From Saccharofermentans sp. (GTDB lineage: Bacteria > Bacillota > Clostridia > Saccharofermentanales > Saccharofermentanaceae), in NCBI GenBank assembly GCA_024403655.1, contig JAKSRK010000015.1:1-40968 (forward strand): DNA of 40,968 nt, given 5' to 3'. Within the stretch, counting starts at the first letter, position 1, and each line of letters opens with the position of its first letter. The notes under the pieces were generated by a model, which saw nothing but the letters and a program-made list of their open reading frames with translations, did no database searches and was not told where the DNA came from. Positions 32 to 32,355 of the stretch are shown here, piece by piece. Position numbers and translations under genes: made by a program.

Positions 32-1162
32 ATGAGCAGCATGAATTACTATAAAACTCTGCAGGAGTACAAAAACAAGAATCAATATCTGGTCATGAAC
101 GAAGTGACCAGAGATATATGTCTGAAGAAAACCCTGACGGTCTATGACATTGAAGTTTTTGCATGGCTTAAGAGTCATCATCCGTCTCATACTCCTGAGA
201 TACTGGACTATTACGAAGAGAATGGGAAACTAATCGTCTTCGAGAAGTTTATTTCAGGTTTGCCTCTGGACGAATACATAAGGAAGAACAATCCCGGTAT
301 TAAACAAAGAGTAAAAATACTGTCAGAGATTTGCGACGGATTAACAAGTCTTCACAAATCTCCCCGGCCAATCATCCACCGAGATATTAAGGCGCAGAAC
401 ATCATTATAGATGCGAACGGAAGCGTTACGATTGTAGATTTTGATGCTGCCAAGGTATATAAAAACGGAGAATCCTGCGATACTGTACTTCTCGGAACAG
501 AAGGCCATGCTGCGCCTGAACAGTATGGTTTCGCTCAGTCAGACCCCAGGACTGATGTGTATGGAGTCGGTATTCTTGCAAAAGAAATTCTTCCGAATAA
601 AAAACCATACAGTAGCATTATTCAAAAAGCTACTTCCATGGATCCAAGGTTCAGATATGCGAATACCCGTCAGCTTAAAGACGCTTTGCATGGAAAGAAT
701 TTTGGCAGAGACAAGGCCATTGTACTGGGCATCGTGCTTACTGTTGCCCTTACTGTCATTAGCTTATATTTGTGTCTTCTTTCAGCAACACTTACACCTG
801 CAAGAAAGGCTGCCACGAATGTTCTGAATAAAGTAAGCATCGTTTATACAGATGGCGATTATACTGCAGATGAGCTTGAAGAGATTATCTCCTCCCCTGA
901 TTATTCAAATGCTGAAGAATTCGAAGAAGCCCTTAATAATGGTGCCGAAGTTAGAAATGCTATCGTTCGCTTCGAAGCTCTTGATGTTCATAGTCGTACT
1001 GCATATGGCTATGGCAATATCTTTGCCGGAGCTCATTTGAATTTTGTATCAACGTCCGCTCCTGATGTTGTTGAGTGCGATATATTAACAGTCAGAATAT
1101 GTGCTGTAAGCCATTACTCTAACCACTGGTTCATTTCCTACGAAATTCTTGATGTAGAATAA
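32..1162 (+). CDS. membrane-anchored Ser/Thr protein kinase-like protein
   Basis: A 376-residue Hanks-type kinase fold. The catalytic loop HRDIK is at residues 116-120 (Asp118), the metal-binding DFG motif appears as DFD at 136-138, and a GTEGHAAPEQYG activation/APE segment follows. The N-lobe is short and I cannot find the glycine-rich loop; a candidate ATP-anchoring lysine is around residues 32-33. One transmembrane helix (about 230-252) is followed by about 120 residues predicted to be outside the cell, with no recognised domain. The layout is kinase inside, possible sensor outside, as in PrkC/PknB-type receptors but without PASTA repeats. The start is chosen from the -10/ATG spacing; an internal Met at residue 4 is an alternative. 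The altered DFG and missing loop leave open that it is a weak kinase or a pseudokinase. The substrate is unknown. Confidence 0.8.
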   Translation: MSSMNYYKTLQEYKNKNQYLVMNEVTRDICLKKTLTVYDIEVFAWLKSHHPSHTPEILDYYEENGKLIVFEKFISGLPLDEYIRKNNPGIKQRVKILSEICDGLTSLHKSPRPIIHRDIKAQNIIIDANGSVTIVDFDAAKVYKNGESCDTVLLGTEGHAAPEQYGFAQSDPRTDVYGVGILAKEILPNKKPYSSIIQKATSMDPRFRYANTRQLKDALHGKNFGRDKAIVLGIVLTVALTVISLYLCLLSATLTPARKAATNVLNKVSIVYTDGDYTADELEEIISSPDYSNAEEFEEALNNGAEVRNAIVRFEALDVHSRTAYGYGNIFAGAHLNFVSTSAPDVVECDILTVRICAVSHYSNHWFISYEILDVE

Positions 1163-1206: not shown

Positions 1207-1227
1207 GAACACGGAGGAGAGTTGCTT

Positions 1228-2730
1228 ATGAGAGGTTTACATACACCGGTATCGGATCTTAGAAAGAGCGTCTTTGTTGAAGTAGCAAAGATTGCATACG
1301 AATCAGAGAACGTAAAGGATGATCTTGAGGCACTGCCTTACAAGATATCTCCCGACGAGACACCCAAATTCGGCGACAACATCTACCAGGAGCGTGCCAT
1401 TATTGCAGAAAGAGCACGACTTGCCATGGGTCTTTCCCTTCGTCCGGCCAACAAACCCGTACACATAACAAGCGGTCTTGATCAGAGTTCCGTTGATGAG
1501 GTTTACTACGAAGCTCCTCTTATGCAGGTAATTCCTTCTGCATGCGCGAAATGCGAGGATAACGTCTACGAAGTATCTAACCTCTGCCGTAACTGCCTTT
1601 CGCACAATTGTGTTGAGGTCTGCCCCGTTGGCGCCGTCTCCATGATAGACGACCACTCCCACATAGATAAGGAAAAGTGTATTAAATGCGGTAAATGCAA
1701 AGCAAGCTGCCCTTACGACGCTATTGGAAAGAGGGTGCGTCCCTGTGCTTTATCCTGTGGCATTAAGGCCATCGAAAGTGACGACTTGGGAAGAGCTTCC
1801 ATAAACCAGAATAAGTGCCTTTCGTGCGGTATGTGCATGGTAAACTGCCCCTTTGGCGCCATTGCAGATAAGTCTCAGTTCTACCAGATGATCAGAGCCA
1901 TGAAGTCTGGCGCCAAGGTCATAGCAGAGATTGCTCCTGCGTATATAGGTCAGTTCGGACCCGAAGCTACTAAGGATAAGATTTATGCTGCGCTAAAGGC
2001 TCTGGGCTTCTATGAGGTATACGAAGTTGCTTTGGGTGCAGACATCGGCTGTATAAACGAAGCCAAGGACTATGTCGAGAATGTTATTCACGGAGATAAG
2101 CCTTTTGCTCTTACTTCCTGCTGCCCTTCCTGGGCTATGCTTGCAAAGCTCTTCTTCCCTGAAGTAAAAGATCAGATATCACTTGAGCTTACTCCCATGG
2201 TCGCAACCGCAAGAAGCATCAAGCAGAAAGAGCCCGACGCCAAGGTGGTATTTATTGGCCCCTGCGCTTCCAAGAAGCTTGAGGCTATGAGAAAGACTGT
2301 ACGCTCTGATGTAGACTTTGTTATTACTTTCGAGGAGCTGGATGCTATCTTTACTGCTCGTGGAATAAATCCTTCTACAATTGAAGCTTCAGGTTCCTTA
2401 CACGATGCTACCGGAGCAGGACGCGGCTATGCCATCGCAGGCGGCGTTATGGATGCAATAAAGAAATGCATGGCAGAATACTATCCCGAAGAGGAATTAA
2501 AGTGCGAGCACTACGAAGGTCTTGCTGACTGCCGTACAGCTCTCCTCCTTGCCAAGAATGGCAAGAAGGACGGTCTTCTTATAGAAGGTATGGCCTGCCC
2601 GGGCGGATGTGTCGCAGGTGCAGGAACCCTAATCGATGTCAACAAGGCCAAGAAAGAGGTCGAGAAGATGGTACAGGCTTCCACCAAGAACGTACCGCCT
2701 CTTGAGCTTAAGGATATTGAGTTAGACTAA
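1228..2730 (+). CDS. monomeric [FeFe] hydrogenase, group-B type
   Basis: A 500-residue iron-only hydrogenase that would interconvert 2H+ and H2 with ferredoxin in the cytoplasm. An N-terminal cysteine-rich region (C106-C132) is followed by two ferredoxin-type CxxCxxCxxxCP clusters (C151-C161 and C197-C207). The H-cluster domain follows: TSCCPSW (C298, C299), GPCASKK (C346) and MACPGGC (C457, C461). These are all four cysteine ligands plus the proton-transfer cysteine. GPCASKK in place of MPCxxK fits group B enzymes, which lack the NADH-linked HydA/B/C partners; none are encoded here. The start is ATG 1228, nine bases after GGAGGA; the upstream in-frame TTG at 1222 is too close to that site. 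The gene stands alone between its own promoter and terminator. It faces the Hdr-Flx-Frd operon tail to tail, so a metabolic link through ferredoxin is plausible but not shown. Confidence 0.9.
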   Translation: MRGLHTPVSDLRKSVFVEVAKIAYESENVKDDLEALPYKISPDETPKFGDNIYQERAIIAERARLAMGLSLRPANKPVHITSGLDQSSVDEVYYEAPLMQVIPSACAKCEDNVYEVSNLCRNCLSHNCVEVCPVGAVSMIDDHSHIDKEKCIKCGKCKASCPYDAIGKRVRPCALSCGIKAIESDDLGRASINQNKCLSCGMCMVNCPFGAIADKSQFYQMIRAMKSGAKVIAEIAPAYIGQFGPEATKDKIYAALKALGFYEVYEVALGADIGCINEAKDYVENVIHGDKPFALTSCCPSWAMLAKLFFPEVKDQISLELTPMVATARSIKQKEPDAKVVFIGPCASKKLEAMRKTVRSDVDFVITFEELDAIFTARGINPSTIEASGSLHDATGAGRGYAIAGGVMDAIKKCMAEYYPEEELKCEHYEGLADCRTALLLAKNGKKDGLLIEGMACPGGCVAGAGTLIDVNKAKKEVEKMVQASTKNVPPLELKDIELD

Positions 2731-3139: not shown

Positions 3140-3173
3140 AAAGGAGTTGCTCCGTTTCCGGAACAACTCCTTT
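3140..3173 (-). terminator. intrinsic terminator of the hdr-flx-frd operon
   Basis: AAAGGAGTTG (3140-3149) pairs with CAACTCCTTT (3164-3173). An inner TCCG/CGGA helix also forms. On the minus strand it ends in CCTTTT and lies about 20 bases after the frdA stop. The AAGGAGTTGC arm closely resembles the terminator at 40890-40919. Confidence 0.7.
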
Positions 3174-3194: not shown

Positions 3195-4805
3195 TTATCT
3201 CTCGTGTCTAGCGTACTTAGGAAGAAGCATAGGAGATACTTCGCCTGTCTCAAGACCAGCGTCCTTAAGCTCCTTGTCGAAGCTTGCTACGTGGTCAATG
3301 TTGAGGTTACCGAGAGTAACTTCCTTATACTTAGCTGCTGCCTTCTTACCTGCGTTACGGCCGAATACGATAACGTCAAGGAGAGAGTTACCCATAAGTC
3401 TGTTTGTACCATGGATACCACCTGCAGCCTCACCAGCTACGAGAAGGTTAGGGATTACGTTTGTGAATCCGTCGCCGTTGATCTCAAGACCACCGTTCTG
3501 GTAGTGAAGTGTAGGATAGATAAGGATAGGTACCTTTCTCATATCGATGCCGTAGTTCATGTACATTCTGAACATAGCAGGGATTCTCTTCTCGATTGTA
3601 CCCTCACCGCCGAGAATCTCAATCATGGGTGTATCAAGCCATACGCCCTGAACTCCACCGGGAGCGTCAACACCTCTGCCCTCTCTGCACTCACGGATAA
3701 CACCGGAAGCGTTAACGTCACGAGTCTCAAGGGGATGGATATAAGCTTCACCGTTAGCATTAACAAGCTGAGCACCTACGGATCTTACCTTCTCTGTAAC
3801 GAGAGCTCCGAGGATCTGTGAAGGATATACAGCACCTGTAGGGTGATACTGGATAGAATCCTGATAAAGGAGAGGAGCACCAGCTCTGTATCCGAGTACA
3901 AGACCGTCAGCTGTAGCACCGTAATGGTTGGATGTAGGGAATCCGTTGTAGTGCATTCTTCCTGCACCACCTGTAGCGATAACAACTGTCTTAGCTCTTG
4001 CTACGAGGTAGTCACCTGTCTCCATGTTAAGAAGAACAGCACCTGCAACCTGGCCCTTATCGTCCTTAATAAGCTCAACAGCAGATGTGAACTCGATTAC
4101 GGGGATACCAAGGTTGATTACTTCGTCACGAAGTGTACGCATGATTTCTGCACCGGAATAGTCCTTAGCAGCGTGCATTCTCTTTCTGGAAGTACCGCCA
4201 CCATGTGTTGTTACCATTGTGCCGTCCTCTTCCTTATCGAACTCTACGCCGAGTTCGTTGAGCCACTTAATAGCATCGGGAGCCTCAGATGTGAGTCTCT
4301 TAACGAGCTCAGGTCTTGCAGCGAAGTGTCCGCCACCGAAGCAGTCAAGGTAGTGCTGTACAGGAGAGTCGTTCTCCTTGTCTGCAGCCTGGATACCACC
4401 CTCAGCCATCATTGTGTTTGCATCACCGATACGAAGCTTTGTAACGATCATTACGTTAGCGCCTGCGTTGTGTGCTTCGATAGCACAGGAAGAACCTGCA
4501 CCGCCGGCACCGATTACGAGTACGTCTACATCGTAGTCAATCTTATTAAGATCAACCTTGTCAGTCATAAGACGGCTTGTTGAATGAAGCATTTTTGCAA
4601 GCTCGATAGGAGCTCTCTGACCCTTGTTGGGACCAACCTTGATCTCATCAAAAGAGTCGTCGTTATAGTCAGGATGGAACTTGGAAAGGAGATCATCCTT
4701 CTCCTCTGCAGTAAGTCTTCTGGGCTCAGTAGCCATACGAGCGGCTCTGGTAGCTTCGACCTTCTTAATGGATTCCATCATACTTTCTGAATATGGTGTA
4801 TACAT
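3195..4805 (-). CDS. frdA: fumarate reductase-like flavoprotein subunit, soluble Hdr-linked type
   Basis: A 536-residue FAD enzyme of the fumarate reductase/succinate dehydrogenase/L-aspartate oxidase family. The FAD Rossmann motif GAGGAG is at 99-104, after an unusual N-terminal extension of about 90 residues. Dicarboxylate-site residues are present: HPTG (H321), TEKVR (R341), HYQNGG (H434) and TNRLMGNS (R469), matching E. coli FrdA H232, R287, H355 and R390. The residue that normally carries covalent FAD (His in the SHT..A.GGI motif) is Asn130 here, so FAD should bind non-covalently. The protein ends about 50 residues after the FAD-binding FGRNAG segment and lacks the usual C-terminal helical domain. 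The start follows AGGAGG by 8 bases, just after the frdB stop. As last gene of the operon it probably takes electrons from FrdB and reduces fumarate. Another enoate or dicarboxylate substrate is possible. Confidence 0.85.
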   Translation of the reverse strand: MYTPYSESMMESIKKVEATRAARMATEPRRLTAEEKDDLLSKFHPDYNDDSFDEIKVGPNKGQRAPIELAKMLHSTSRLMTDKVDLNKIDYDVDVLVIGAGGAGSSCAIEAHNAGANVMIVTKLRIGDANTMMAEGGIQAADKENDSPVQHYLDCFGGGHFAARPELVKRLTSEAPDAIKWLNELGVEFDKEEDGTMVTTHGGGTSRKRMHAAKDYSGAEIMRTLRDEVINLGIPVIEFTSAVELIKDDKGQVAGAVLLNMETGDYLVARAKTVVIATGGAGRMHYNGFPTSNHYGATADGLVLGYRAGAPLLYQDSIQYHPTGAVYPSQILGALVTEKVRSVGAQLVNANGEAYIHPLETRDVNASGVIRECREGRGVDAPGGVQGVWLDTPMIEILGGEGTIEKRIPAMFRMYMNYGIDMRKVPILIYPTLHYQNGGLEINGDGFTNVIPNLLVAGEAAGGIHGTNRLMGNSLLDVIVFGRNAGKKAAAKYKEVTLGNLNIDHVASFDKELKDAGLETGEVSPMLLPKYARHER

Positions 4806-4818
4806 CTATGGGCCCTCC

Positions 4819-5493
4819 TTATTTCTCAATCTCTCTGTTGTTGTAAAGATTCTTGACCTCATCAATGGGCTTAGCCATCATCCCTGCCATTGCCTCATCG
4901 AATACGCCGTTATCGATCTCTTCAACACGCTTGGTAAGGTGCTTTGCCTCGGGCTCGATGTACTTACCGTTAAGTCTTCTTGCAAGAAGTCCGACCATGG
5001 GATGTGAGATACCTGCGGGGCATCTTACGGAACAAGTTCCGCACATGATACAGTCGAAAGACTCCTCTGCGCACTTCTTCATATCGCCTCTCTGAGCATA
5101 TGCGATGTACTGCATTGTGTTAAGGCTCTGAGGGCATGCCTTTGTGCAGGCATTACATCCGATACATGAGTAGATCTCAGGATAAAGCTCCATCATAACC
5201 TTCTGGTTAGCCTTGAGATCATTGATATCGTATGTTCTCTTGTCTGTAGGGAAGTAAGGAACCTGTGTGATATACATGCCTTCCTGTACCTTTGTTGTAC
5301 AAGCAAGACCTGTCTTAAGCTCGTTCTTACCCTTGATTCTGTAGATTGTAGCGCAAGCTCCGCAGAAGCCGTGACGGCATCCAACGCCTCTCTTCAAAGT
5401 ATAGCCTGCATATTCCATAGCGGTCTGAATTGTCAGAGCCGCAGGTACGCTGTATTTCTTTCCGTAGAAATATACATTTACCATCTCTTCCAT
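4819..5493 (-). CDS. frdB: fumarate reductase-like iron-sulfur subunit
   Basis: A 224-residue electron-transfer subunit with a plant-type [2Fe-2S] domain (C39, C44, C47, C65). Two CxxCxxCxxxCP motifs follow at C110-C120 and C148-C158. Canonical FrdB/SdhB proteins have [2Fe-2S], [4Fe-4S] and [3Fe-4S] centres; here the last motif has the extra cysteine and should hold a [4Fe-4S], as in HdrC or TfrB-type proteins. There is no CCG domain like that at the C-terminus of methanogen TfrB; HdrB of the same operon could supply it. No membrane anchor subunit (FrdC/D) is encoded, so quinone is an unlikely partner. The start is set at ATG 5493, about nine bases after AGAAAGGA; the longer frame to 5538 would run into flxA. 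It should wire FrdA to the Hdr-Flx module. Confidence 0.85.
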   Translation of the reverse strand: MEEMVNVYFYGKKYSVPAALTIQTAMEYAGYTLKRGVGCRHGFCGACATIYRIKGKNELKTGLACTTKVQEGMYITQVPYFPTDKRTYDINDLKANQKVMMELYPEIYSCIGCNACTKACPQSLNTMQYIAYAQRGDMKKCAEESFDCIMCGTCSVRCPAGISHPMVGLLARRLNGKYIEPEAKHLTKRVEEIDNGVFDEAMAGMMAKPIDEVKNLYNNREIEK

Positions 5494-5512: not shown

Positions 5513-6352
5513 TCAATATTCGTTGGGAAGTTCATCAATCTGGTCGAACCTGAATACAGGGCCGTCCTTACATACGAACTTGGATCCGATGTTGCATCTT
5601 CCGCACTTACCGATACCGCACTTCATACGAAGCTCAAGTGTTGTGTAGATCTGCTCATCCGTGAATCCCATTTCCTTGAGACCCTGAAGAACGAACTTGA
5701 TCATGATCGGCGGTCCGCAGACGATTCCGATGCAGTCTGTAGAAAAACCGATTTCCTTCAAATATGTGGGAACGAATCCAACGTGGCCGTCCCAGCCTTC
5801 CTGCTCACGGTCGATTGTAAGATATACATTAACATTGGGAGCCTTCATCCAGACATCCTGGATCTCCTGAAGCTTAACCAAATCATCTGCAGATCTTGAA
5901 CCGTAGAGGATATCGATTCTGCCGTAATTCTCTCTGTTATCAAGGCAATAGTTGATAACGGAACGAAGAGGTGCAAGACCGATACCACCGGCGATGAAGA
6001 GAAGGTTCTTGCCCTTGAACTCTGTCTCGACGGGGAAGTTGTTTCCGTAAGGTCCTCTTACTGTAACCTCATCACCAACCTGAAGGGAGTGAAGCTGCTC
6101 TGTAAGAATACCGCACTTCTTGATGGAGAATTCCTGGTACTCCTTATTCGTAGGAGATGAAGTGATGGAGAACATACCCTCGCTTACTCCGGGAATACAT
6201 ACCATAGCACACTGACCGGGCATATGCTCGAAGAGCTTGCCGCCGTCGGGTGCATTTACCTTAAAAGTCTTAACATCGGGTGTCTCCTGTGTGATACCCG
6301 TAATGATACCGATCTGAGGCACCAAACTGTCATGACTGCCGCAATTACACAT
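5513..6352 (-). CDS. flxA: FAD/NAD(P)-binding oxidoreductase, FlxA/AsrB-like
   Basis: A 279-residue ferredoxin-NADP reductase/dihydroorotate dehydrogenase PyrK-like protein. The FAD-binding motif FSITSSP is at 61-67, the pyridine-nucleotide motif AGGIGLAPLRS at 121-131 and CGPP near 212. A C-terminal [2Fe-2S] site has C245, C250, C253 and C261. In FlxABCD-HdrABC complexes this subunit oxidises NADH and feeds electrons towards HdrA; the same role is inferred here. The start is ATG 6352, nine bases after AAGGAGG. The longer frame to 6376 places that Shine-Dalgarno site inside the coding sequence. It overlaps the flxB stop by 8 bases. Homology to sulfite reductase subunit B (AsrB) is an alternative label, but no AsrC sirohaem subunit is present. 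Confidence 0.85.
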   Translation of the reverse strand: MCNCGSHDSLVPQIGIITGITQETPDVKTFKVNAPDGGKLFEHMPGQCAMVCIPGVSEGMFSITSSPTNKEYQEFSIKKCGILTEQLHSLQVGDEVTVRGPYGNNFPVETEFKGKNLLFIAGGIGLAPLRSVINYCLDNRENYGRIDILYGSRSADDLVKLQEIQDVWMKAPNVNVYLTIDREQEGWDGHVGFVPTYLKEIGFSTDCIGIVCGPPIMIKFVLQGLKEMGFTDEQIYTTLELRMKCGIGKCGRCNIGSKFVCKDGPVFRFDQIDELPNEY

Positions 6353-7454
6353 TGGCTCCTGCCTCCTTCTTCTCATTCTCGAATGCCTTTATTACCTTAA
6401 CTACATTAAGGGACTGAGGGCACTTGTCCACGCAACGTCCGCATCCTACGCAGGAATACATACCGTATCTGTCGGGGAAGTAAACGAGCTTATGCATGAA
6501 TCTCTGGCGGAAACGCTGAACCTGTGAAGTACGGTTCTGGCCACCTGCCATAAGTGTGAAGTCGGAATACATGCAGGAATCCCAGCATCTGTATCTCTGG
6601 ATTCCGTCCTTAGTGGAGTAATCCTTGATGTCGTAGCACTGACATGTAGGGCATACGAAAGTACATGTTCCGCAGCCAAGACAAGGCTTGTAAAGTTCGT
6701 TCCATACTTCGGAATTGAACTTCTCATCTGTCTTGCCTTCTCCCCATCCCTCAAGTGAGAGCTTTGTGTTGGGAAGCTTTGTCATGATGTTTGTGATGTT
6801 ACTGATCTCTGCATCTGCAGCGTCATCAGCAGCATCGGAAAGGAGAGAAGCTACGCTCTTTGTAAGCTCTTCACCCTTCTCGGAGATTGCCTTCCAGTAA
6901 AGTTCACCGTCAACAATCCATGTAGCTACGTCAGCCTTTGCCTTGGAAGGATCTGCAGGATCTACACCAAATACAGTACAGAAGCATGACTCTTCGGGCT
7001 CGTGACATGCAAGAGCAACGATGATGCCGTGCTCTCTTCTTGCCTTGTAGAAGTTATCTACGGGATCTGTAAGGAATACCTTATCAAGAGCTTCAATACC
7101 CTTAACGTCGCATGACTTCATGCCGAATACGACAAAATCCTTATCCTTGAGTTCAGTGGGAGTAATCTCAAGCTTTGTTCTGAGCTTTGTCTCAACGAGA
7201 GTCTCACTGCCCTCTTCTTCAGATGCATCCGTAGGGATAATCTTTCTGTTTACCTTGTAAAGTGTCTCGAACTGAGGGAAGAAAGCATCCTTGGGAGACT
7301 TAACTGTTTTAAGAGAGTCAAGTGCTACCTCGCAGTCTTCTGTCCAGTTAGCGTAATTTGCCTGACCAGCCTTCTTAACGGGAAGGAAAAGCTCCTTGCT
7401 CTCGGCGATGGCAGCAAATAACGAATTAATATTGTCTAAAGATATCTTATACAT
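6345..7454 (-). CDS. flxB: 4Fe-4S dicluster protein, FlxB/AsrA-like
   Basis: A 369-residue soluble iron-sulfur protein. The N-terminal two thirds is an AsrA/FlxB-like region with scattered cysteines (C115, C150, C157, C159). Two ferredoxin-type clusters follow: C258-C268, with additional CQC and Cys290/Cys294 nearby, and C335-C345. It probably passes electrons between FlxA and the FlxC/HdrA side. The start overlaps the flxC stop (TAATG) and follows AAAGGAG by nine bases, indicating translational coupling. The B/C letter assignment follows resemblance and gene order and could be swapped in other naming schemes. Confidence 0.75.
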   Translation of the reverse strand: MYKISLDNINSLFAAIAESKELFLPVKKAGQANYANWTEDCEVALDSLKTVKSPKDAFFPQFETLYKVNRKIIPTDASEEEGSETLVETKLRTKLEITPTELKDKDFVVFGMKSCDVKGIEALDKVFLTDPVDNFYKARREHGIIVALACHEPEESCFCTVFGVDPADPSKAKADVATWIVDGELYWKAISEKGEELTKSVASLLSDAADDAADAEISNITNIMTKLPNTKLSLEGWGEGKTDEKFNSEVWNELYKPCLGCGTCTFVCPTCQCYDIKDYSTKDGIQRYRCWDSCMYSDFTLMAGGQNRTSQVQRFRQRFMHKLVYFPDRYGMYSCVGCGRCVDKCPQSLNVVKVIKAFENEKKEAGANV

Positions 7455-8431
7455 TATCCGTTACTCCTTTCTGCCACGATACCGGGCTCGCAATCCTCAA
7501 ATGTGTAGTCAGTAAGGGGGCTCTGAGCCTCAGGATCCTTACCTGCCTGGAACTCTCCGTAAAGCTCATCGATATCCTTGATGAACTTTCTGTTGAAGAG
7601 ATGAAGAGGAATACCCTCAGGACAAACTCTTGAACACTCACCGCAGTCAGTACATCTTCCTGCAACGTGGAAAGCTCTGATAATGTGGAACATCTTCTCT
7701 TCGAAGGAGTCTACATTTGCCTTCTGCTGGCTGTCGAAATTGTTATTATCGAAAGCGCACTTGCGGCATGAGCATGCAGGGCATACGTTACGGCATGCAT
7801 TACATCTGATGCACTTGCTGAGTTCCTTCTTGAAGAACTCGAATCTCTCAGCGGGAGACATAGCCTCGAGAGCCTTAACTTCGTCAAATCTCTCGCTGTC
7901 TGCTGTGTCCTTGGACTCTCCCCAGAGCTCATCGTAAATCATGTGCTCCTTGCCCTTACATACGTGGCAACGACCGAGGAGAAGATCGCTATAAGACATC
8001 TCCTTATCGCCGTAAATTGTCTTGAAGCTTACGCTGTCAGGACCGTCGAGCTCAGTACCGGAAACTTCTTCGATACCCTTGATACCGTTAGCTCTTGCCT
8101 TATCGATATCAAGCTTACCGCGGCAACCTACACCGATGATGTAAGCGTTCTCACGGTCAACTCTGTGCTCTCTGATAAGCTGATTGAAGCTGTAAGAATC
8201 GCAAGGCTTGAGGCATACTGCTGTCTTACCCTCGAGCTTGGATGCTTCGATCATCATCTTGCTTAAGTTTGCTCCGCAGAATCCGTCATAGACGAAGTCC
8301 TTCAAAGACTCTGCAGTCTCGAACATATGAGGTTCGGGATTGTAGGGCATGTCGCCCTTCTTCCAACCGAGTACTCTTGCTACTGTACCGTCAGACAAGA
8401 GTGCTGATAATCTGTCGATTAATCCTTGCAT
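7454..8431 (-). CDS. flxC: 4Fe-4S protein with FrhB/FdhB-like N-terminal region, FlxC-like
   Basis: A 325-residue iron-sulfur protein. The first part (about 40-160) resembles the F420 hydrogenase/dehydrogenase beta-subunit family, with KPCDSY (C77), GVGCRGK (C103) and a CHVC pair (C155, C158). Two 4Fe-4S clusters follow: C207-C217, immediately extended by CPACSCRKC, and C260-C270. The cysteine-rich extension could bind a further cluster. It sits between flxD and flxB with overlapping ends: its start overlaps the flxD stop region by 13 bases, with GGGGGA upstream. It is likely part of the electron wire, and in related complexes such subunits are candidates for the ferredoxin-facing site. That last point is inference. 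Confidence 0.75.
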   Translation of the reverse strand: MQGLIDRLSALLSDGTVARVLGWKKGDMPYNPEPHMFETAESLKDFVYDGFCGANLSKMMIEASKLEGKTAVCLKPCDSYSFNQLIREHRVDRENAYIIGVGCRGKLDIDKARANGIKGIEEVSGTELDGPDSVSFKTIYGDKEMSYSDLLLGRCHVCKGKEHMIYDELWGESKDTADSERFDEVKALEAMSPAERFEFFKKELSKCIRCNACRNVCPACSCRKCAFDNNNFDSQQKANVDSFEEKMFHIIRAFHVAGRCTDCGECSRVCPEGIPLHLFNRKFIKDIDELYGEFQAGKDPEAQSPLTDYTFEDCEPGIVAERSNG

Positions 8432-8862
8432 CTTAAATCCCCCAATCTGACGTTCTCACCAAGAGACTTGATCTTCTCTACGAACTCATTCATCGTAGCG
8501 GAGAACTTGGCACCCTCAGCGGCTGATACCCACTCTACTCTTGTTCTTCCGTTCTCAACACCAATGTAGTCGAGCATGGAGAAGAGGAGTGTCATTCTTC
8601 TTCTTGCAAAATAGTTACCTGATGTGTAGTGGCAGTCTCCGGGGTGACATCCGCAGATGATTACACCGTCTGCACCACGCTCAAATGCTCTCAGGATGAA
8701 CATGGGATTAACTCTACCTGAGCAAGGGACACGAATGATCTTAACGTCTGCAGGATAGGAAAGACGGCTGGAGCCTGCAAGATCCGCACCTGCGTAGCTG
8801 CACCAGTTGCAGCAGAACGCTACGATCAAAGGTCTGAATTCACCATTCTCTGTCATCGGCAT
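8419..8862 (-). CDS. flxD: MvhD/FlxD-family iron-sulfur subunit
   Basis: A 147-residue member of the methyl-viologen-reducing hydrogenase delta-subunit family (MvhD), which bridges an electron-donating module to HdrA through a [2Fe-2S] cluster. Characteristic motifs are FCCNWCSYAGAD (C17, C18, C21), RVPCSGRV (C47) and CGCHPGDCHY (C70, C72, C77). It overlaps the hdrA stop by 10 bases. The start is ATG 8862, ten bases after GGAGG, in preference to the Met two codons later. The order hdrA-mvhD-flxCBA is what marks the neighbouring NADH module as the donor in place of an [NiFe] hydrogenase, which is absent from the window. Confidence 0.88.
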   Translation of the reverse strand: MPMTENGEFRPLIVAFCCNWCSYAGADLAGSSRLSYPADVKIIRVPCSGRVNPMFILRAFERGADGVIICGCHPGDCHYTSGNYFARRRMTLLFSMLDYIGVENGRTRVEWVSAAEGAKFSATMNEFVEKIKSLGENVRLGDLRCKD

Positions 8863-10841
8863 ATTGCATCCACCTCCGAAATCAACTGTCTGTTAGAGAA
8901 GCCCTGAAGGTCCATTGCACCGGAAGGACAAGCGCCTGTACAAGCACCACAGCCCTGGCAGAGAGCAACATTAACCTGAGCAACACGACGTACTTCACGT
9001 ACTCCGGGTCCTCTTACTTCCTGATCCTCATAAGTGATTGCACCGTAAGGACAAACATTTGCACAAGTGGAGCATCCGTTACACATCATGACATCGCACT
9101 TAGCTGTGCAAGGGTTGGTCTTGAGCTTATCCTTGGCAAGAAGACCGATAACCTTAACGGCTGCAGCACCTGCCTGTGATACTGTCTCAGGAATATCCTT
9201 AGGTCCCTGTGTAACACCTGACAGGAAGATACCTGCCGTAGGAGACTCAACGGGACGAAGCTTAGCATGAGCTTCTGTGAGGAAGTTATTTGTATCGATG
9301 CTGGCTGTGAGCATAGTCGCGATCTTTCTGATGTCGGGATTAGGCTCGATAGCAGCTGCAAGAACTACCATGTCAGCATTCATTACGATCTGCTTGTTGT
9401 CGATGAGATCAACGCCCTGTACAAGAAGAGAACCGTCCGGCTGAGGTGCAACCTTACCGACCTGACCCTTGATGTAGTTTACGTGATACTGCTCTACAGC
9501 TCTTCTGTAGAACTCATCGAAGTTCTTACCGGGTGTTCTTACATCAATATAGAATACAGTTACGTTAACATCCGGATACTTATCTCTGATAAGCATAGCG
9601 TGCTTAGCTGTGTACATGCAGCAGATCTTGGAGCAGTAAGACTTACCTCTGTGGTCTGCGCATCTTGAACCAACGCACTGGATGAATACCATGTTCTTCG
9701 GGGGCTTATGGTCGCTCATTCTCTCAAGGTGACCATTTGTAGGGCCTGCCGCATTCATGATTCTCTCGAGTTCAAGAGATGTGATAACGTCGGGGCTCTG
9801 AGAGTAAGCATACTCATCGTACTTGTCGAGCTTGATTATATCAAAGCCTGTAGCAACTACGATTGCACCGTACTTCTCTGTGATGATCTCATCCTGCTGC
9901 TCATAATCAACAGCACCTGCCTGACAAACCTTTGAGCAGACACCGCACTTACCTGTCTTGAACATGAGGCAGTGCTCACGATCGATAACGGGTACGTTAG
10001 GTACAGCCTGAGCAAAAGGTGTATAGATAGCAGATCTTGTATTGAGTTCTCTGTTGAACTCGTTAGGTACCTTCTTCATAGGGCACTTCTGCTGGCATAC
10101 GCCGCAGCCTGTACACTTATCAAGATCAACGCTTCTTGCCTTCTTCTTGATATCAACAGTAAAGTTACCTACGAATCCGCTTACCTTATCTACTTCACTA
10201 TAAGTGTGGATAGTGATATTGGGATGTGTGGATACCTCAACCATCTTAGGTGTGAGGATACAGGATGAACAGTCAAGAGTCGGGAAGGTCTTGTCGAGCT
10301 GGCTCATTCTACCACCGATGGAAGGAGTCTTCTCAACGATATCTACCTTGTATCCTGCCTCAGCAATATCGATTGCTGTCTGGATACCGGCAATACCACC
10401 ACCGATTACGAGAGCTCTCTTAACAACGGGGCTCTCACCTGCCTGGAGAGGAGTATTGAGGTTAACCTTTGCGATTGCTGCTCTTGCAAGAATAACAGCC
10501 TTCTTTGTAGCCTCCTCCATGTCCTTATGAATCCAGGAACAGTGCTCACGAATATTGGCAACTTCAACCATGTAAGGGTTAAGGCCGGCCTTCTCAGCAC
10601 AATTTCTGAATGTTGCTTCGTGCATTCTGGGAGAGCAGGAGCAGACAACAACACCTGTAAGCTGCTTCTCCTTGATTGCCTCTGCAATCTTCTGCTGTCC
10701 TACTTCGGAACACATATAAGGATAGTCTTCCGCGTGAACAACACCGGGCTCGAATCTAACGAGCTCAACTACTTTCTTTACATCAACTGTCGCCGCAATG
10801 TTGGTACCGCAGTGACAGACAAAAACACCTATTCTTTGCAT
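8853..10841 (-). CDS. hdrA: CoB-CoM heterodisulfide reductase-like subunit A, bifurcating flavoprotein
   Basis: A 662-residue HdrA of usual length. The N-terminal domain has CHCG (C9, C11). The thioredoxin-reductase-like FAD domain carries GGGIAG at 147-152. An inserted ferredoxin domain has CTGCGVCQQKCP and CGVCSKVC, and a C-terminal dicluster domain has CNGCSTCANVCP and CQGCGACTGACP. In methanogens and in Flx-Hdr complexes the HdrA FAD is the site of flavin-based bifurcation, splitting pairs of electrons between ferredoxin and the HdrBC branch. It starts two bases after the hdrC stop. There is no sign of truncation, and the domain set is complete enough to support bifurcation. Function in the operon is inferred from family and context. 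Confidence 0.9.
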   Translation of the reverse strand: MQRIGVFVCHCGTNIAATVDVKKVVELVRFEPGVVHAEDYPYMCSEVGQQKIAEAIKEKQLTGVVVCSCSPRMHEATFRNCAEKAGLNPYMVEVANIREHCSWIHKDMEEATKKAVILARAAIAKVNLNTPLQAGESPVVKRALVIGGGIAGIQTAIDIAEAGYKVDIVEKTPSIGGRMSQLDKTFPTLDCSSCILTPKMVEVSTHPNITIHTYSEVDKVSGFVGNFTVDIKKKARSVDLDKCTGCGVCQQKCPMKKVPNEFNRELNTRSAIYTPFAQAVPNVPVIDREHCLMFKTGKCGVCSKVCQAGAVDYEQQDEIITEKYGAIVVATGFDIIKLDKYDEYAYSQSPDVITSLELERIMNAAGPTNGHLERMSDHKPPKNMVFIQCVGSRCADHRGKSYCSKICCMYTAKHAMLIRDKYPDVNVTVFYIDVRTPGKNFDEFYRRAVEQYHVNYIKGQVGKVAPQPDGSLLVQGVDLIDNKQIVMNADMVVLAAAIEPNPDIRKIATMLTASIDTNNFLTEAHAKLRPVESPTAGIFLSGVTQGPKDIPETVSQAGAAAVKVIGLLAKDKLKTNPCTAKCDVMMCNGCSTCANVCPYGAITYEDQEVRGPGVREVRRVAQVNVALCQGCGACTGACPSGAMDLQGFSNRQLISEVDAICR

Positions 10842-10843
10842 TG

Positions 10844-11239
10844 TTACCTCCTGTACCTGCGGAATGCGCTTACAAGAAGCTGCTGAGGAACGTCGTCATC
10901 GAGGAGTGCAGGAATATCTTCAGCGTGAAGATGATCTCCGCCTCTCTGTCTCTCAACAAGCTGACGAGCTGCGTCAACGACTCTTCCGGGCTGAACGTCA
11001 CGAGGGCAACGCTCAACACATGCGAAGCATCCGAGGCACTTCCAAAGTGACTTGGACTCAGCCAAAGCTTCTATATTGTCATTTACTACATAGGAAACGA
11101 ACTGATGGGGCTTAATGTCCATCTCGTTAAAGGAAGGGCAGGATGCGGAACACTTACCGCACTTCATGCACTTATAAGGGTCCGAGCCGCTGATCTGACG
11201 GATCTGCTCGGCCTGCTTCTCAGCCATAGTCAAACTCAT
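10844..11239 (-). CDS. hdrC: heterodisulfide reductase-like subunit C
   Basis: A 131-residue soluble HdrC with two CxxCxxCxxxCP clusters: C24-C34 and C68-C78. It conducts electrons from HdrA to HdrB. Length is somewhat below 200-residue methanogen HdrC proteins but typical for bacterial ones. The start overlaps the hdrB stop (ATGA, 4 bases), a sign of coupled translation. No membrane segments, so this is not the HdrE/cytochrome type. Confidence 0.88.
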   Translation of the reverse strand: MSLTMAEKQAEQIRQISGSDPYKCMKCGKCSASCPSFNEMDIKPHQFVSYVVNDNIEALAESKSLWKCLGCFACVERCPRDVQPGRVVDAARQLVERQRGGDHLHAEDIPALLDDDVPQQLLVSAFRRYRR

Positions 11240-12033
11240 TGTTCAACACCCTCCTTTACTCCGAGAGCCTCAGCGAGAAGCTCTGTGAAATAATATACGG
11301 GAACCTTTGAATCAGCTTCCGACTTATTGAGGTTATACATGCAAAGAGGGCATGCAGTAATAAGCATGTCTGCACCGAATCCGTCAGCGGAATCGAAGAT
11401 CATCTTCGTTCTCTTGGCGGGGATATTCTTATCCTCCAAAGCTGTATATGCACCGCAACATTCATTCCTGTAAGGATAGATGACGGGTTCTGCACCGAGT
11501 GCCCTGATAAAATCTTCCATGATCTGAGGGTTCTCAGGATCGTCAAACTCGAGCACCTTACCGGGACGAAGAGCAAGGCATCCGTAGTATGCACCGATCT
11601 TCTTGCCTGTAAGAGGGTTTACAACCTTCTTCTTGAGCTCATCGAAACCGATTCTGTCACGAAGGACTTCAAGGAAATGTACGACTGTGGTCTCGCCCTT
11701 GTAAGGAGCATCAAGCTGCATGTAGTTGTTTGCTCTGTCAGAGATGTCTGCGACATTCTTCATGTCGTCATTAACGCGCTTAAGCACGTGATGGCAAGCA
11801 GAACAGAGAGTGATAAGGTCCTGCCCCTGCTCCTTGGCGTAGTTAAGAGCTCTGACTGAAGAAAGCTTGGATGCAATCTCGTCTGTGCCCAAAGGATATA
11901 CTCCGCCACAGCACTGCCATTCGGGGATCTCTACCAGTTCAAACCCAAGAGCGACCGCGGCACGTCTGGCATATAAATCAAGATCCTGTGCCTTGTTCTT
12001 CAGGGTACATCCGGGGTAATAACTGTATTTCAT
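11236..12033 (-). CDS. hdrB: heterodisulfide reductase-like subunit B, two CCG domains
   Basis: A 265-residue HdrB. Both cysteine-rich CCG motifs are complete: C9, C41-C42, C77, C80 and C152, C192-C193, C228, C231. In methanogens these bind two non-cubane [4Fe-4S] clusters that cleave a heterodisulfide. Here no CoM/CoB pathway is visible, so the physiological acceptor could be another disulfide, or the clusters could pass electrons to the FrdAB pair encoded downstream. In Campylobacterota MfrABE, a CCG subunit partners fumarate-reductase-like subunits, which is a precedent. It is the first gene of the operon, with GGGAGG six to seven bases before ATG. Confidence 0.88.
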   Translation of the reverse strand: MKYSYYPGCTLKNKAQDLDLYARRAAVALGFELVEIPEWQCCGGVYPLGTDEIASKLSSVRALNYAKEQGQDLITLCSACHHVLKRVNDDMKNVADISDRANNYMQLDAPYKGETTVVHFLEVLRDRIGFDELKKKVVNPLTGKKIGAYYGCLALRPGKVLEFDDPENPQIMEDFIRALGAEPVIYPYRNECCGAYTALEDKNIPAKRTKMIFDSADGFGADMLITACPLCMYNLNKSEADSKVPVYYFTELLAEALGVKEGVEQ

Positions 12034-12282: not shown

Positions 12283-14589
12283 TTATCTGTAGGAACCGTT
12301 CAAACGTTTCTTGGCAGTCTTCTCCACATAAAGCTTCTCATCAGCCTGATCAAGAAGTTCAAAGATATCGACGGAATCACCGCATTCGAATCCGCATACG
12401 CCTACGCTGACTTCGATAGGATAGTCCTTGCCCGCATATTCGTTATGCTTAATCATTATTCTGTTGATTCTGTCCTTGATAGTCTGCTCGTATTCGGCCA
12501 GATCACCCACGAGAGCAAATACAACGAACTCGTCGCCTCCGATTCTTCCGATGATATCTCCGTTTCTGAAAGCATCGGTCAGTATGGAAGCAATCTCCCT
12601 GATCGCGAAGTCTCCGTCGTCGTGTCCGAACTTATCGTTGATCATCTTGAGATTATCCATATCGGCATAGCAGATAATGGCATTCTTGCCCCTGTTGGAA
12701 GGATCGTTAATAGACTTACGGGCATACTCGAGAAAACCTCTTCTGTTATATAGTCCGGTGAGTTCATCCTGCTTTGCTTCCTTGCTGAGAAGACTGTTGT
12801 CCCTCATGAATTTCTCAAGGGAATCCTGCAGTTCCTGTTTAACACGGTTCTGCTCTTCTATAAGCATCAGGGACTTAATGGATACAGAGAGCTGGTAAGC
12901 AACAAGTGAGACATTAACCAGATCGGATGAATCAAGCTTATTTACTATAAATCCATACAGATCCTCACCGACGAAGAGGGGGAACACCGTCATGGTGCAC
13001 CTCTTATCGTCATTTATAAACTCATTATCGAAGATTCTCTCTGTTCTTAAAAGCATCTGCTCATCGATAGGCTTATGAACACCTTCCTCGTCTTCGTAGG
13101 CCATGAGAAGAACCGACTTGGGGCATCTCCACTTATCCTGGGGCGTATGCTTAAGGTTACCCTGGAACATATAAAGATAAGATGCTTCAAAGCCTACACT
13201 GACAAGGCCTTCAATCAGATGATCGTAATGAATACCCATGCGGTTGGACATTGTAAAAATCTCGCCGGTCTGTCTGTTAACAAGTCCGGAGACTTTATCC
13301 CTGCTGCCCATATGAGTACTTACGATACTTAATCCCTTCAGGGAGATTATACGGTAGAACTCCGAGAACATACTCTCAGTCCGGATAATCTTTTTGTCAT
13401 CCGACAGGCTGTCCTCGCCGGCACTTTGAAGTGTCTGAAGTACATTAAATAATCTCTCTGTTCCGACAAAAGTCAGAATATCCGAATCGGCAATCCTACG
13501 GAAAGCAGATTCAACTTCTTCGCAGTTCTTCTCCCCCGTCAGGAAGGCAAAATACGAACTGCAGAATTCTTCAAAATACTCCGTTATCTTTAAGGCCTGA
13601 CTGTCTCCGCTGAATACTCCGAAGAGATATTTCTTAAGAGAACCTATACTGTCGTCGCTGTCGGAAGACATATCGGAGAGATTAAATCTGATCTTAAGAC
13701 CGTCGATATCAAGCCTGCTGCAGCCGCAGGAATTACGCTGAACAAGAAAGGTATCCACCGACACCTTGCCGGCAGCACTTCCGTTTATGTATTCTTCCGC
13801 GTTAAGCATGGCCTTGTAGGTAAGTTCTGCGGAACTCGCCTCAACCGTAGTAAGCGGAGGTGTCATTGAAGCGGCAAAATCGTCGTCATCGAAGCTTGCA
13901 ACAAGGATATCCTTACCTATGACAAGACCTCTTTTCTCGAAGACTTTGTAGGAACCTAGTGCCATAAGATCGTTGGCAAACATCACCGCATCAAGATCCG
14001 GGTTGTCGTTAAGAAGCTTTTCAGTTGCTTTGCAACTTCCTTCGGTGAAGTCACCATAAACTATTCTTTCTGCGGGGCATTCAAGATTATTTGCCGCCAT
14101 TATTTCTACAAAAGCATTAAGCCTTTCGCGAGCATCCCTGTTGGTCTCAGGGCCGGAAACGAGGCCTATCTTCTTTGCATTATGCTTCTCAATAAGATGA
14201 AGAAGTGCTCTTCCGAATCCGTTTTTGTTATCGAAAGTAACAGAAGGGTATCCGTCTACTTCCGCAAATAAAGTTACCTTGGGAATATCCGGAAGCTTAT
14301 CGAGGAACTCCTTCTGGAGCTGAAGTTCTGCTCTCGAACCGATGGTACCCAAAAGCACATACAAAATATCTATATTATTCTCTGTAGGAAGCGAGAAAAC
14401 GGAATTATACTGGTACTCGTATTCGATGTCTTCGCTTCTTCCGTCGGGCTTTCCTATATAGTGTCCGGGGAAAATATAAAGATTGGCATCCAGCATATGC
14501 GCAGCAAGTTCCGCACCCTTACATGCCTGACTTGTGAAGTAATTATCGAGATTATCTACCAGAAAACCGATATTAAGTCTTTTGCCCAT
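12283..14589 (-). CDS. diguanylate cyclase with periplasmic-binding-protein-like sensor domain
   Basis: A 768-residue cytoplasmic signalling protein that should make cyclic di-GMP. Residues 1 to about 290 form a LacI/periplasmic-binding-protein type I fold, opening directly with the first beta strand and lacking the helix-turn-helix of LacI repressors. No signal peptide or membrane helix is visible. A middle region of about 300 residues has an uncertain GAF-like part, and a short helical linker precedes the GGDEF domain (about 610-768). The active-site GGDEF is intact at 684-688 and the inhibitory RxxD site is present as RNGD at 675-678, so product feedback is expected. The start follows GAGGAG. 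A sugar-like or other small intracellular ligand may be sensed, but none can be named. It is transcribed toward hdrB but has no operon-like spacing with it. Confidence 0.88.
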   Translation of the reverse strand: MGKRLNIGFLVDNLDNYFTSQACKGAELAAHMLDANLYIFPGHYIGKPDGRSEDIEYEYQYNSVFSLPTENNIDILYVLLGTIGSRAELQLQKEFLDKLPDIPKVTLFAEVDGYPSVTFDNKNGFGRALLHLIEKHNAKKIGLVSGPETNRDARERLNAFVEIMAANNLECPAERIVYGDFTEGSCKATEKLLNDNPDLDAVMFANDLMALGSYKVFEKRGLVIGKDILVASFDDDDFAASMTPPLTTVEASSAELTYKAMLNAEEYINGSAAGKVSVDTFLVQRNSCGCSRLDIDGLKIRFNLSDMSSDSDDSIGSLKKYLFGVFSGDSQALKITEYFEEFCSSYFAFLTGEKNCEEVESAFRRIADSDILTFVGTERLFNVLQTLQSAGEDSLSDDKKIIRTESMFSEFYRIISLKGLSIVSTHMGSRDKVSGLVNRQTGEIFTMSNRMGIHYDHLIEGLVSVGFEASYLYMFQGNLKHTPQDKWRCPKSVLLMAYEDEEGVHKPIDEQMLLRTERIFDNEFINDDKRCTMTVFPLFVGEDLYGFIVNKLDSSDLVNVSLVAYQLSVSIKSLMLIEEQNRVKQELQDSLEKFMRDNSLLSKEAKQDELTGLYNRRGFLEYARKSINDPSNRGKNAIICYADMDNLKMINDKFGHDDGDFAIREIASILTDAFRNGDIIGRIGGDEFVVFALVGDLAEYEQTIKDRINRIMIKHNEYAGKDYPIEVSVGVCGFECGDSVDIFELLDQADEKLYVEKTAKKRLNGSYR

Positions 14590-32291: not shown

Positions 32292-32355
32292 GATCCAAAC
32301 CCTCAAATGTCCGTAAGGCAAATCACGGCGACTTTTTTAATATTATTCCAGCATC

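What the first reader, a model, noticed from the sequence alone, without database searches (positions are those of the whole stretch)
3195..4805. FrdA lacks the covalent-FAD histidine and the C-terminal helical domain, and has a 90-residue N-terminal extension
The motif that holds the flavinylated His in FrdA/SdhA has Asn130 here, while all dicarboxylate-binding His/Arg residues remain. In E. coli FrdA, losing covalent FAD removes succinate oxidation but leaves fumarate reduction, so this supports a one-way reductase. The protein ends soon after the FAD domain but keeps a conserved-looking N-terminal extension, so it looks like a distinct architecture and not a broken gene.
Basis: partly seen in the sequence, partly recalled or inferred. 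Interest (0 to 1): 0.55.

Follow-up and report, generated by a model that had tools for sequence, protein, structure and literature searches.

The report
Short fumarate reductase with loose flavin
This gene makes an unusual, shortened fumarate reductase that probably holds its flavin without a chemical bond, is found in many gut and rumen bacteria, and sits beside an NADH-using, possibly electron-splitting gene set that may explain how these bacteria make succinate.

Summary
FrdA (536 aa, 3195-4805, minus strand) has Asn130 where E. coli FrdA/SdhA carry the flavinylated His; the aligned catalytic His/Arg/Glu remain. 61 residues follow NRLMGNSL (183-205 in E. coli SdhA/FrdA) and 98 precede GxGxxG (11-13). 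No C-terminal-domain family (PF02910) occurs in the 97.8%-complete genome, and a strong hairpin follows the stop. It is not a broken gene: Asn is present in 81 of 81, 27 of 27 and 40 of 40 rows, and extension and tail lengths are constant in 67 of 67.

FrdA ends the operon hdrBCA-flxDCBA-frdBA, kept in 84 of 85 loci with room; the exception is complete but permuted. Fumarase genes lie near in 72 of 103 loci.

Best reading: a soluble, quinone-free fumarate reductase with non-covalent FAD, probably one-way, fed here by NADH through a bifurcating Flx-Hdr complex, as already proposed for Pseudoclostridium thermosuccinogenes. Across the phylum the same FrdA occurs with other electron-supply genes, or none in reach, so its architecture is not tied to Flx-Hdr. 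One-way action and bifurcation are inferred.

The parts
3195..4805 (-). frdA: 536-aa flavoprotein of a fumarate reductase, no covalent-FAD His, no C-terminal helical domain
4536..4805 (-). N-terminal extension, FrdA residues 1-90; R20, L40, H44-P45-D46 and G58 invariant in 68 rows
   Evidence: a search with it alone hits 28 of 196 class genomes, each time at frdA
4416..4418 (-). codon of Asn130, at the position of the flavinylated His of E. coli FrdA/SdhA
3381..4526 (-). FAD_binding_2 domain (PF00890, whole profile), with catalytic H321, E338, R362, H434, R469
3198..3380 (-). short C-terminal tail (residues 476-536) in place of the helical domain; P525, P529, Y531 invariant in 68 rows
3140..3173 (-). 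terminator-like hairpin just after frdA
   Evidence: z -6.8; not among the pattern hits
4819..5493 (-). frdB: [2Fe-2S] plus two four-Cys [4Fe-4S] motifs; the second stands where E. coli FrdB has a three-Cys motif (start codon chosen among several)
5513..6376 (-). flxA: NAD(P)H/FAD-binding reductase subunit
6345..7454 (-). flxB: AsrA-like iron-sulfur subunit
7454..8431 (-). flxC: two-[4Fe-4S] subunit
8419..8862 (-). flxD: FlpD/MvhD-like subunit
8853..10841 (-). hdrA: HdrA2-like flavoprotein, candidate bifurcation site
10844..11239 (-). hdrC: two-[4Fe-4S] subunit
11236..12033 (-). hdrB: two complete CCG motifs (85 of 85 complete relatives)

Best explanation
FrdA is the catalytic subunit of a soluble, quinone-independent fumarate reductase FrdAB that holds FAD without a covalent bond and works mainly or only from fumarate to succinate. 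In this organism its electrons come from NADH: FlxA oxidises NADH, electrons pass via FlxBCD to the HdrA flavin, one half goes at low potential to ferredoxin, and the other half goes via HdrC/HdrB and the FrdB iron-sulfur chain to FrdA and fumarate (about 2 NADH + oxidised Fd + fumarate to 2 NAD+ + reduced Fd + succinate). The conserved N-terminal extension packs on the FAD domain and probably takes over part of the docking and bracing done in complex II by the missing helical domain. Shown: sequence anatomy, conservation, operon, gene association. Inferred: non-covalent FAD, direction, bifurcation, direct HdrB-to-FrdB transfer, role of the extension.
For: Catalytic residues conserved, flavin His absent. 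Class I fumarase genes on the same strand near frdA in 72 of 103 loci: 43 with the fumA match within 2.2 kb of the frdA start (directly after frdA), 27 at 2.2-3.5 kb, 1 farther, 1 upstream; 64 of 80 in the closest relatives, 7 of 20 in the class-wide set; in reach in 12 of 40 phylum-wide places. All nine operon genes kept in 84 of 85 loci, complete but permuted in the exception. Gene spacing -32 to +19 bases. The second FrdB cluster motif has four Cys in 99 of 101 ORFs (the other two are cut short), where E. coli FrdB has CTFVGYC, fitting loss of the [3Fe-4S] quinone-side cluster. HdrB has both CCG motifs in 85 of 85. The tree puts the clade on the SdhA/FrdA side, away from NadB (96/94). Blautia luti has this cluster (L027); two other FAD_binding_2 loci read there (C95, C53) have no frdB beside them (further weaker ones not read), and a study of that species reports methylviologen-fumarate reductase activity and high frdAB transcription (passages of PMC12773636). 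A published 'succinate operon' with fumarase, Flx-Hdr and fumarate reductase rises about 4-fold under CO2 limitation, though not significantly for all subunits (passages of PMC7282089). The genome has an RnfC above its cut-off as a possible outlet for ferredoxin.
Against: No biochemical test. Asn removes the known attachment site, but other attachment cannot be excluded from sequence. Phylum-wide, 18 of 40 FrdA places show no Hdr or Flx gene in the DNA read (two of these had under 3 kb upstream; one, L229, shows no frdB either), and a nineteenth had only 0.1 kb upstream, so Flx-Hdr coupling is not a property of FrdA itself. The fumarase link is weaker away from close relatives (7 of 20 class-wide) and absent at the window and its nearest relatives L013-L018 and L075; the window's genome has no class I fumarase and one FumC-type protein not resolved from aspartase. 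Most fumarase calls rest on 31-36% identity to L132's proteins. The FAD and active-site part of the model is low confidence (residues 129-217 mostly under 50).
Confidence: 0.7

Rival explanations
1. FrdAB with HdrCB is a thiol-linked fumarate reductase (TfrAB split over four genes): dithiol oxidation at the HdrB CCG clusters drives fumarate reduction, and Flx-HdrA regenerates the thiol separately.
For: TfrA is the best NCBIfam match of FrdA (334.5 bits); HdrB keeps both CCG motifs; four phylum-wide places show hdrC-hdrB-frdB-frdA without HdrA or Flx in reach (L242, L247, L251, L257).
Against: The TfrA cut-off of 718 bits is not reached; TfrB is one fused chain (recalled), here the genes are separate; no thiol carrier like CoM/CoB is known for these bacteria (recalled).
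Confidence: 0.13
2. An NADH-fumarate reductase without bifurcation: Flx-Hdr passes all electrons to fumarate.
For: The Blautia luti study models an NADH-dependent fumarate reductase (passages of PMC12773636).
Against: HdrA keeps the ferredoxin-type cluster motifs and the HdrA2-like layout; plain NADH oxidation would not need HdrA (inference).
Confidence: 0.12
3. Another unsaturated acid, not fumarate, is the substrate, or the protein is an L-aspartate oxidase.
For: NadB-like outgroup proteins also have Asn here; the superfamily includes urocanate reductase.
Against: Fumarase genes lie near in 72 of 103 loci; frdB is directly upstream; the tree separates the clade from NadB; TIGR00551 gives 250.3 bits against a cut-off of 452.75; the aligned C4-dicarboxylate residues are kept.
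Confidence: 0.05

Closest known systems
Pseudoclostridium thermosuccinogenes 'succinate operon' (passages of PMC7282089; Koendjbiharie and van Kranenburg 2019 preprint, seen only in its reference list)
   Same: Fumarase, Flx-Hdr and fumarate reductase genes in one operon; proposed to couple fumarate reduction to ferredoxin reduction
   Different: I did not have its sequence; the passages I saw do not speak of the flavin His, the missing domain or the extension
Blautia luti frdAB (passages of PMC12773636)
   Same: An 88%-identical FrdA in the same nine-gene cluster plus fumarase in strain MSK.16.34 (L027)
   Different: The paper's text has no occurrence of Hdr or Flx and models an NADH donor; that its frdAB is this pair in its strain was not checked
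Thiol:fumarate reductase TfrAB (methanogens)
   Same: FrdA-like subunit; FrdB linked to HdrB/C-type clusters (recalled); best NCBIfam match
   Different: TfrB is a fusion (recalled); the TfrA profile is 546 long and is matched only to 418; FrdA is far below the cut-off (334.5 of 718)
8-methylmenaquinol:fumarate reductase MfrABE/SdhABE
   Same: CCG protein as electron relay to FrdB (recalled); HdrB matches its anchor profile best (145.8 bits)
   Different: Far below cut-offs (FrdA 223.8 of 1100; HdrB 145.8 of 500)
E. coli FrdABCD / SdhABCD
   Same: Flavoprotein fold, catalytic residues, FrdB partner
   Different: No flavin His, no helical domain, extra N-terminus, four-Cys second motif in FrdB, no anchor genes in the operon
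Flavocytochrome c fumarate reductases and L-aspartate oxidase
   Same: Non-covalent FAD (PMC9557727 passages); the flavocytochromes also end soon after the FAD domain and top the second aligner (1d4c_B Z 25.9, 3.3 A, 382 aligned), tied with E. coli FrdA (6b58_C Z 25.5, 3.8 A, 376 aligned)
   Different: No haem domain here; no FrdB partner there (recalled)
FlxABCD-HdrABC (Desulfovibrio)
   Same: Seven donor genes; the title of Meyer et al. 2014, seen in a reference list, links Hdr-Flox and fumarate reduction in D. alaskensis
   Different: Whether a fumarate reductase is a direct partner there was not checked

Membership tests
Complex II flavoprotein (SdhA/FrdA, flavinylated) | FAD_binding_2 fold and C4-dicarboxylate residues | tested here: met
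   PF00890 228.9 bits over the whole profile; residues conserved; top Foldseek match E. coli FrdA, E 1.2e-28
Complex II flavoprotein (SdhA/FrdA, flavinylated) | His that carries the covalent FAD | tested here: not met
   Asn in every clade row examined
Complex II flavoprotein (SdhA/FrdA, flavinylated) | C-terminal helical domain PF02910 | tested here: not met
   0 of 61 members; absent from the genome, while 11 of 14 control genomes ring
Complex II flavoprotein (SdhA/FrdA, flavinylated) | FrdB with a three-Cys [3Fe-4S] motif | tested here: not met
   four Cys in 99 of 101 ORFs; the other two (L071, L042) are cut short
Complex II flavoprotein (SdhA/FrdA, flavinylated) | Membrane anchor subunits in the operon | tested here: not met
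   none recognised among the nine operon genes; distant relative L231 has a b561-type cytochrome next door
Thiol:fumarate reductase TfrAB | TfrA profile NF004900 above cut-off | tested here: not met
   334.5 of 718 bits
Thiol:fumarate reductase TfrAB | FrdB-HdrD fusion | tested here: not met
   separate frdB, hdrC, hdrB
Thiol:fumarate reductase TfrAB | Thiol as electron donor | not testable with these tools
   needs assay
L-aspartate oxidase NadB | TIGR00551 above cut-off | tested here: not met
   250.3 of 452.75 bits; tree side
FlxABCD-HdrABC | All seven genes present with their domains | tested here: met
   HdrA gives 792 of 1100 bits to the HdrA2 profile, below its cut-off
FlxABCD-HdrABC | Bifurcation of NADH electrons | not testable with these tools
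   needs assay

The most novel reading that the evidence does not exclude
This FrdA defines a separate, phylum-wide class of fumarate reductase: always non-covalent FAD, no helical domain, and an N-terminal arm that serves as a universal dock. The same FrdAB is plugged into different electron sources (Flx-Hdr from NADH, HdrA fused to an NAD(P)-binding module, HdrCB alone, or b-type cytochromes), and in gut and rumen Clostridia it makes succinate formation an energy-conserving, ferredoxin-yielding step.
Probability: 0.35. Interest if true: 0.65.

Novelty: new variant of a known kind. Interest (0 to 1): 0.45.

Why it matters
Succinate is a fermentation product of gut Clostridia such as Blautia luti, and how such bacteria reduce fumarate without a membrane complex is not settled. 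If this enzyme couples fumarate reduction to ferredoxin reduction, ATP-yield and hydrogen budgets for such species change, because the published B. luti model assumes an NADH-dependent fumarate reductase (passages of PMC12773636). The family also offers a natural test of two ideas: that loss of the covalent flavin bond makes the enzyme one-way, and that the complex II helical domain is dispensable if another element docks FrdB.

Tried and rejected
Broken gene or frameshift: rejected (no frame of domain length after the stop; constant ends in 67 of 67 rows). In the 81-row set two rows have odd lengths (L048 416 aa, L089 558 aa); I suspect assembly errors but did not check.

Split C-terminal domain elsewhere: PF02910 has no match in G000, G060 and G286; G059 (Blautia luti) has two, both in other flavoproteins.

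Asn130 as a unique signature: rejected, since 8 of 14 outgroup proteins share it and 2 of 5 TfrA-profile-like proteins have Ala. The signature is Asn plus extension plus short tail.

A fixed link of this FrdA to Flx-Hdr: held in the close and class-wide sets, not across the phylum. Of 40 places, 5 have the full nine genes (L222 and L223 completed by L264 and L265), 12 have an Hdr variant without FlxAB in reach (2 of them cut by contig ends), 4 have HdrCB only, 18 have none in reach (2 with under 3 kb upstream), and 1 was too short to judge.

Fold of the extension alone: the isolated 99-residue model is weak (pLDDT 63, pTM 0.27), so no fold search was run on it. In the full model the same stretch scores 78-96 per block, which suggests that it packs on the core. 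No PDB sequence match (best E 0.22). The structural aligner tied flavocytochrome c (Z 25.9) and E. coli FrdA (Z 25.5), so it does not decide between them. The terminator pattern scan did not list the hairpin and found no excess over shuffles.

Dropped rows and flaws: genus loci L002-L012 were left out of the 81-row alignment (Asn checked later). Two TfrA-like loci (L171, L174) gave wrong ORFs and were left out of the tree and counts; the tree used 10 of 21 clade rows. A first residue look-up was one position off and was corrected. The script stopped with an error at its last listing (row L177), after the results used here. Loci of different collections may hold the same genome twice; I did not remove such pairs. 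(a plasmid search with the GGDEF neighbour) led nowhere. True methanogen TfrA and MfrA sequences were not at hand; only profile scores were used.

Literature: ten searches and passages of seven papers showed no description of this FrdA architecture and no assay of the complex. Most subscription journals and the 2019 preprint are outside the library, so absence from print is not claimed.

Full report
What is there. The ORF at 3195-4805 on the minus strand encodes 536 aa. It starts 13 bases after frdB behind a GGAGG ribosome-binding site and is followed by a hairpin of -29.6 kcal/mol, z -6.8 against shuffles. It is the last of nine tightly spaced genes (gaps -32 to +19): hdrB, hdrC, hdrA, flxD, flxC, flxB, flxA, frdB, frdA. 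Gene names rest on Pfam and NCBIfam matches, below the NCBIfam cut-offs, and on gene order. Record titles of near relatives suggest a Saccharofermentans-like gut or rumen clostridium (inference).

The three claims. Against E. coli K-12 FrdA, SdhA and NadB (fetched) the residue at the flavinylated His is Asn130. The residues H321, T337, E338, R362, H434 and R469 match the catalytic set. After NRLMGNSL only 61 residues remain, against 205 in FrdA and 183 in SdhA; before GxGxxG there are 98, against 11 and 13. PF02910 is found in 0 of 61 family members and nowhere in the window's genome of 97.8% completeness, while the same search rings in 11 of 14 control genomes.

More than chance. Asn130 is present in 81 of 81 rows (window copy plus 80 genome-contig loci at 75-97% identity, the best 80 of 576 relatives in a capped scan), in 27 of 27 class-wide rows and in 40 of 40 phylum-wide rows with tblastn identities down to 51%. 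In the 67 class- and phylum-wide rows the part before GxGxxG is 94-99 residues and the part after the NSL motif 58-72. In the extension R20, L40, H44, P45, D46 and G58 never vary in 68 rows; in the tail P525, P529 and Y531 never vary. A search with the extension alone hits 28 of 196 class genomes, each time at the frdA gene (places compared). The clade is discrete: in the class search 43 of 293 genomes have a member at 60% identity or more (one split over two contigs), the next match scores 207.9 bits at 37%, and no other listed match exceeds 42% (capped list); in the phylum search 40 of 398 genomes have a member at 689 bits or more and the next are at 291 and 278 bits and start at profile position 87-89, thus lack the extension. 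In the window's own genus it is patchy, 12 of 59 genomes.

The residue alone is not enough. Eight of 14 outgroup flavoproteins also have Asn at this position, seven of the eight on the NadB branch, and 2 of 5 TfrA-profile-like proteins have Ala.

Where it sits in the family. A tree of 32 proteins puts the clade on a long stem (1.88) on the SdhA/FrdA side of a branch with support 96/94, with the NadB proteins on the other side. The full model (pLDDT 75, pTM 0.79) matches E. coli FrdA best in Foldseek, and flavocytochrome c and E. coli FrdA equally in the second aligner (Z 25.9 and 25.5). The stretch 129-217, which includes Asn130, is mostly under pLDDT 50, so no claim is made on flavin contacts. 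The extension scores 78-96 per ten-residue block within the full model but 54-77 in its first ninety residues when folded alone, which suggests an arm packed on the core and not a domain of its own.

The partners. Of 103 loci examined, 85 have at least 7.4 kb upstream, and 84 of these show all nine genes in the same order and strand. The exception, L132/L179, has fumarase-frdBA-hdrBCA-flxDCBA, complete but permuted. Class I fumarase genes lie on the same strand near frdA in 72 of 103 loci: 43 with the fumA match within 2.2 kb of the frdA start (directly after frdA), 27 at 2.2-3.5 kb, 1 farther, 1 upstream. The share is 64 of 80 in the close relatives, 7 of 20 class-wide, 1 of 2 further loci, and none at the window; many loci are cut short, so these are lower bounds. 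Pfam confirmed the fumarase at L132 and the one beside frdA in Blautia luti; the rest rest on tblastn to L132's proteins. FrdB has a [2Fe-2S] motif (99 of 99 complete ORFs) and two four-Cys motifs; the second is CxxCxxCxxxC in 99 of 101 ORFs, the other two being cut short, where E. coli FrdB has CTFVGYC. HdrB has two complete CCG motifs in 85 of 85.

Beyond the class. Among 40 phylum-wide places, 5 have Flx-Hdr, 12 have an Hdr variant without FlxAB in reach (in L225 an HdrA fused to an NAD(P)-binding GltD-like module; the others were not scanned), 4 have only hdrC-hdrB-frdB-frdA, 18 have no Hdr or Flx gene in reach and 1 was too short. Neighbours in the last group include a b561-type cytochrome with two [4Fe-4S] motifs and ATP-citrate lyase (L231), and by appearance only, unscanned, malic enzyme and multihaem cytochromes. 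So the FrdA architecture is older or wider than its link to Flx-Hdr.

Mechanism. Non-covalent FAD follows from loss of the attachment residue and from the behaviour of engineered and natural homologues (passages of PMC9557727: potential lower by 90-150 mV; soluble fumarate reductases and L-aspartate oxidase reduce fumarate only). With standard potentials (recalled: NADH -320 mV, fumarate +33 mV, ferredoxin -400 to -500 mV) NADH can pay for ferredoxin reduction if fumarate takes the other half of the electrons. The genome holds an RnfC above cut-off, and a group B1 [FeFe] hydrogenase lies next to the operon (1222-2730, 581.9 bits against a cut-off of 450), so reduced ferredoxin has possible outlets.

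What was known. The Pseudoclostridium thermosuccinogenes 'succinate operon' was proposed to couple fumarate reduction to ferredoxin reduction (passages of PMC7282089, citing a 2019 preprint not held). In tubeworm symbionts and Thioflavicoccus, tfrAB interspersed with flxABCD-hdrABC led to a similar suggestion of a joint complex (passages of PMC6315080). The Blautia luti study measured methylviologen-fumarate reductase activity and high frdAB transcription; its text has no occurrence of Hdr or Flx and models an NADH-dependent enzyme. What I add is the family definition (Asn, extension, short tail, four-Cys FrdB), its spread, its fumarase link, and its modular partners.

Verdict. It is a new variant of a known kind.

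Noticed in passing
window 1222-2730 (+): Group B1 monomeric [FeFe] hydrogenase (HydM-like, 581.9 bits against a cut-off of 450) converges on the operon; a possible outlet for ferredoxin reduced by the bifurcating complex.
   Followed up: partly
L225 9622-14091: 1489-aa HdrA fused to a GltD/NfnL-like NAD(P)-binding module beside hdrBC, flxD, frdBA and, by appearance, succinyl-CoA synthetase genes: another electron-input design for the same FrdAB.
   Followed up: partly
L231 4153-12259: The same FrdAB type beside a b561-type cytochrome with [4Fe-4S] motifs and both ATP-citrate lyase subunits, which suggests use in a reductive TCA cycle.
   Followed up: partly
L242, L247, L251, L257: Four-gene set hdrC-hdrB-frdB-frdA without HdrA or Flx in reach, like a thiol:fumarate reductase split into separate genes.
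   Followed up: no
window 22674-25199 (-): 841-aa fusion of a xylose-isomerase-like TIM barrel with an AMP-binding enzyme.
   Followed up: no
window 29136-32321 (-): 1061-aa protein with an N-terminal TIR domain (also a ThsB_TIR match) and a PQQ_2 beta-propeller match; possible defence or signalling protein.
   Followed up: no
window 12283-14589 (-): 768-aa fusion of a LacI-type periplasmic-binding-like sensor with a GGDEF diguanylate cyclase upstream of the operon on the same strand.
   Followed up: no
window 32-1162 (+): Protein kinase domain with a C-terminal extension.
   Followed up: no
NadB-like outgroup proteins: Asn at the flavin-His position is common there too, so this residue alone should not be used to annotate fumarate reductases.
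   Followed up: yes
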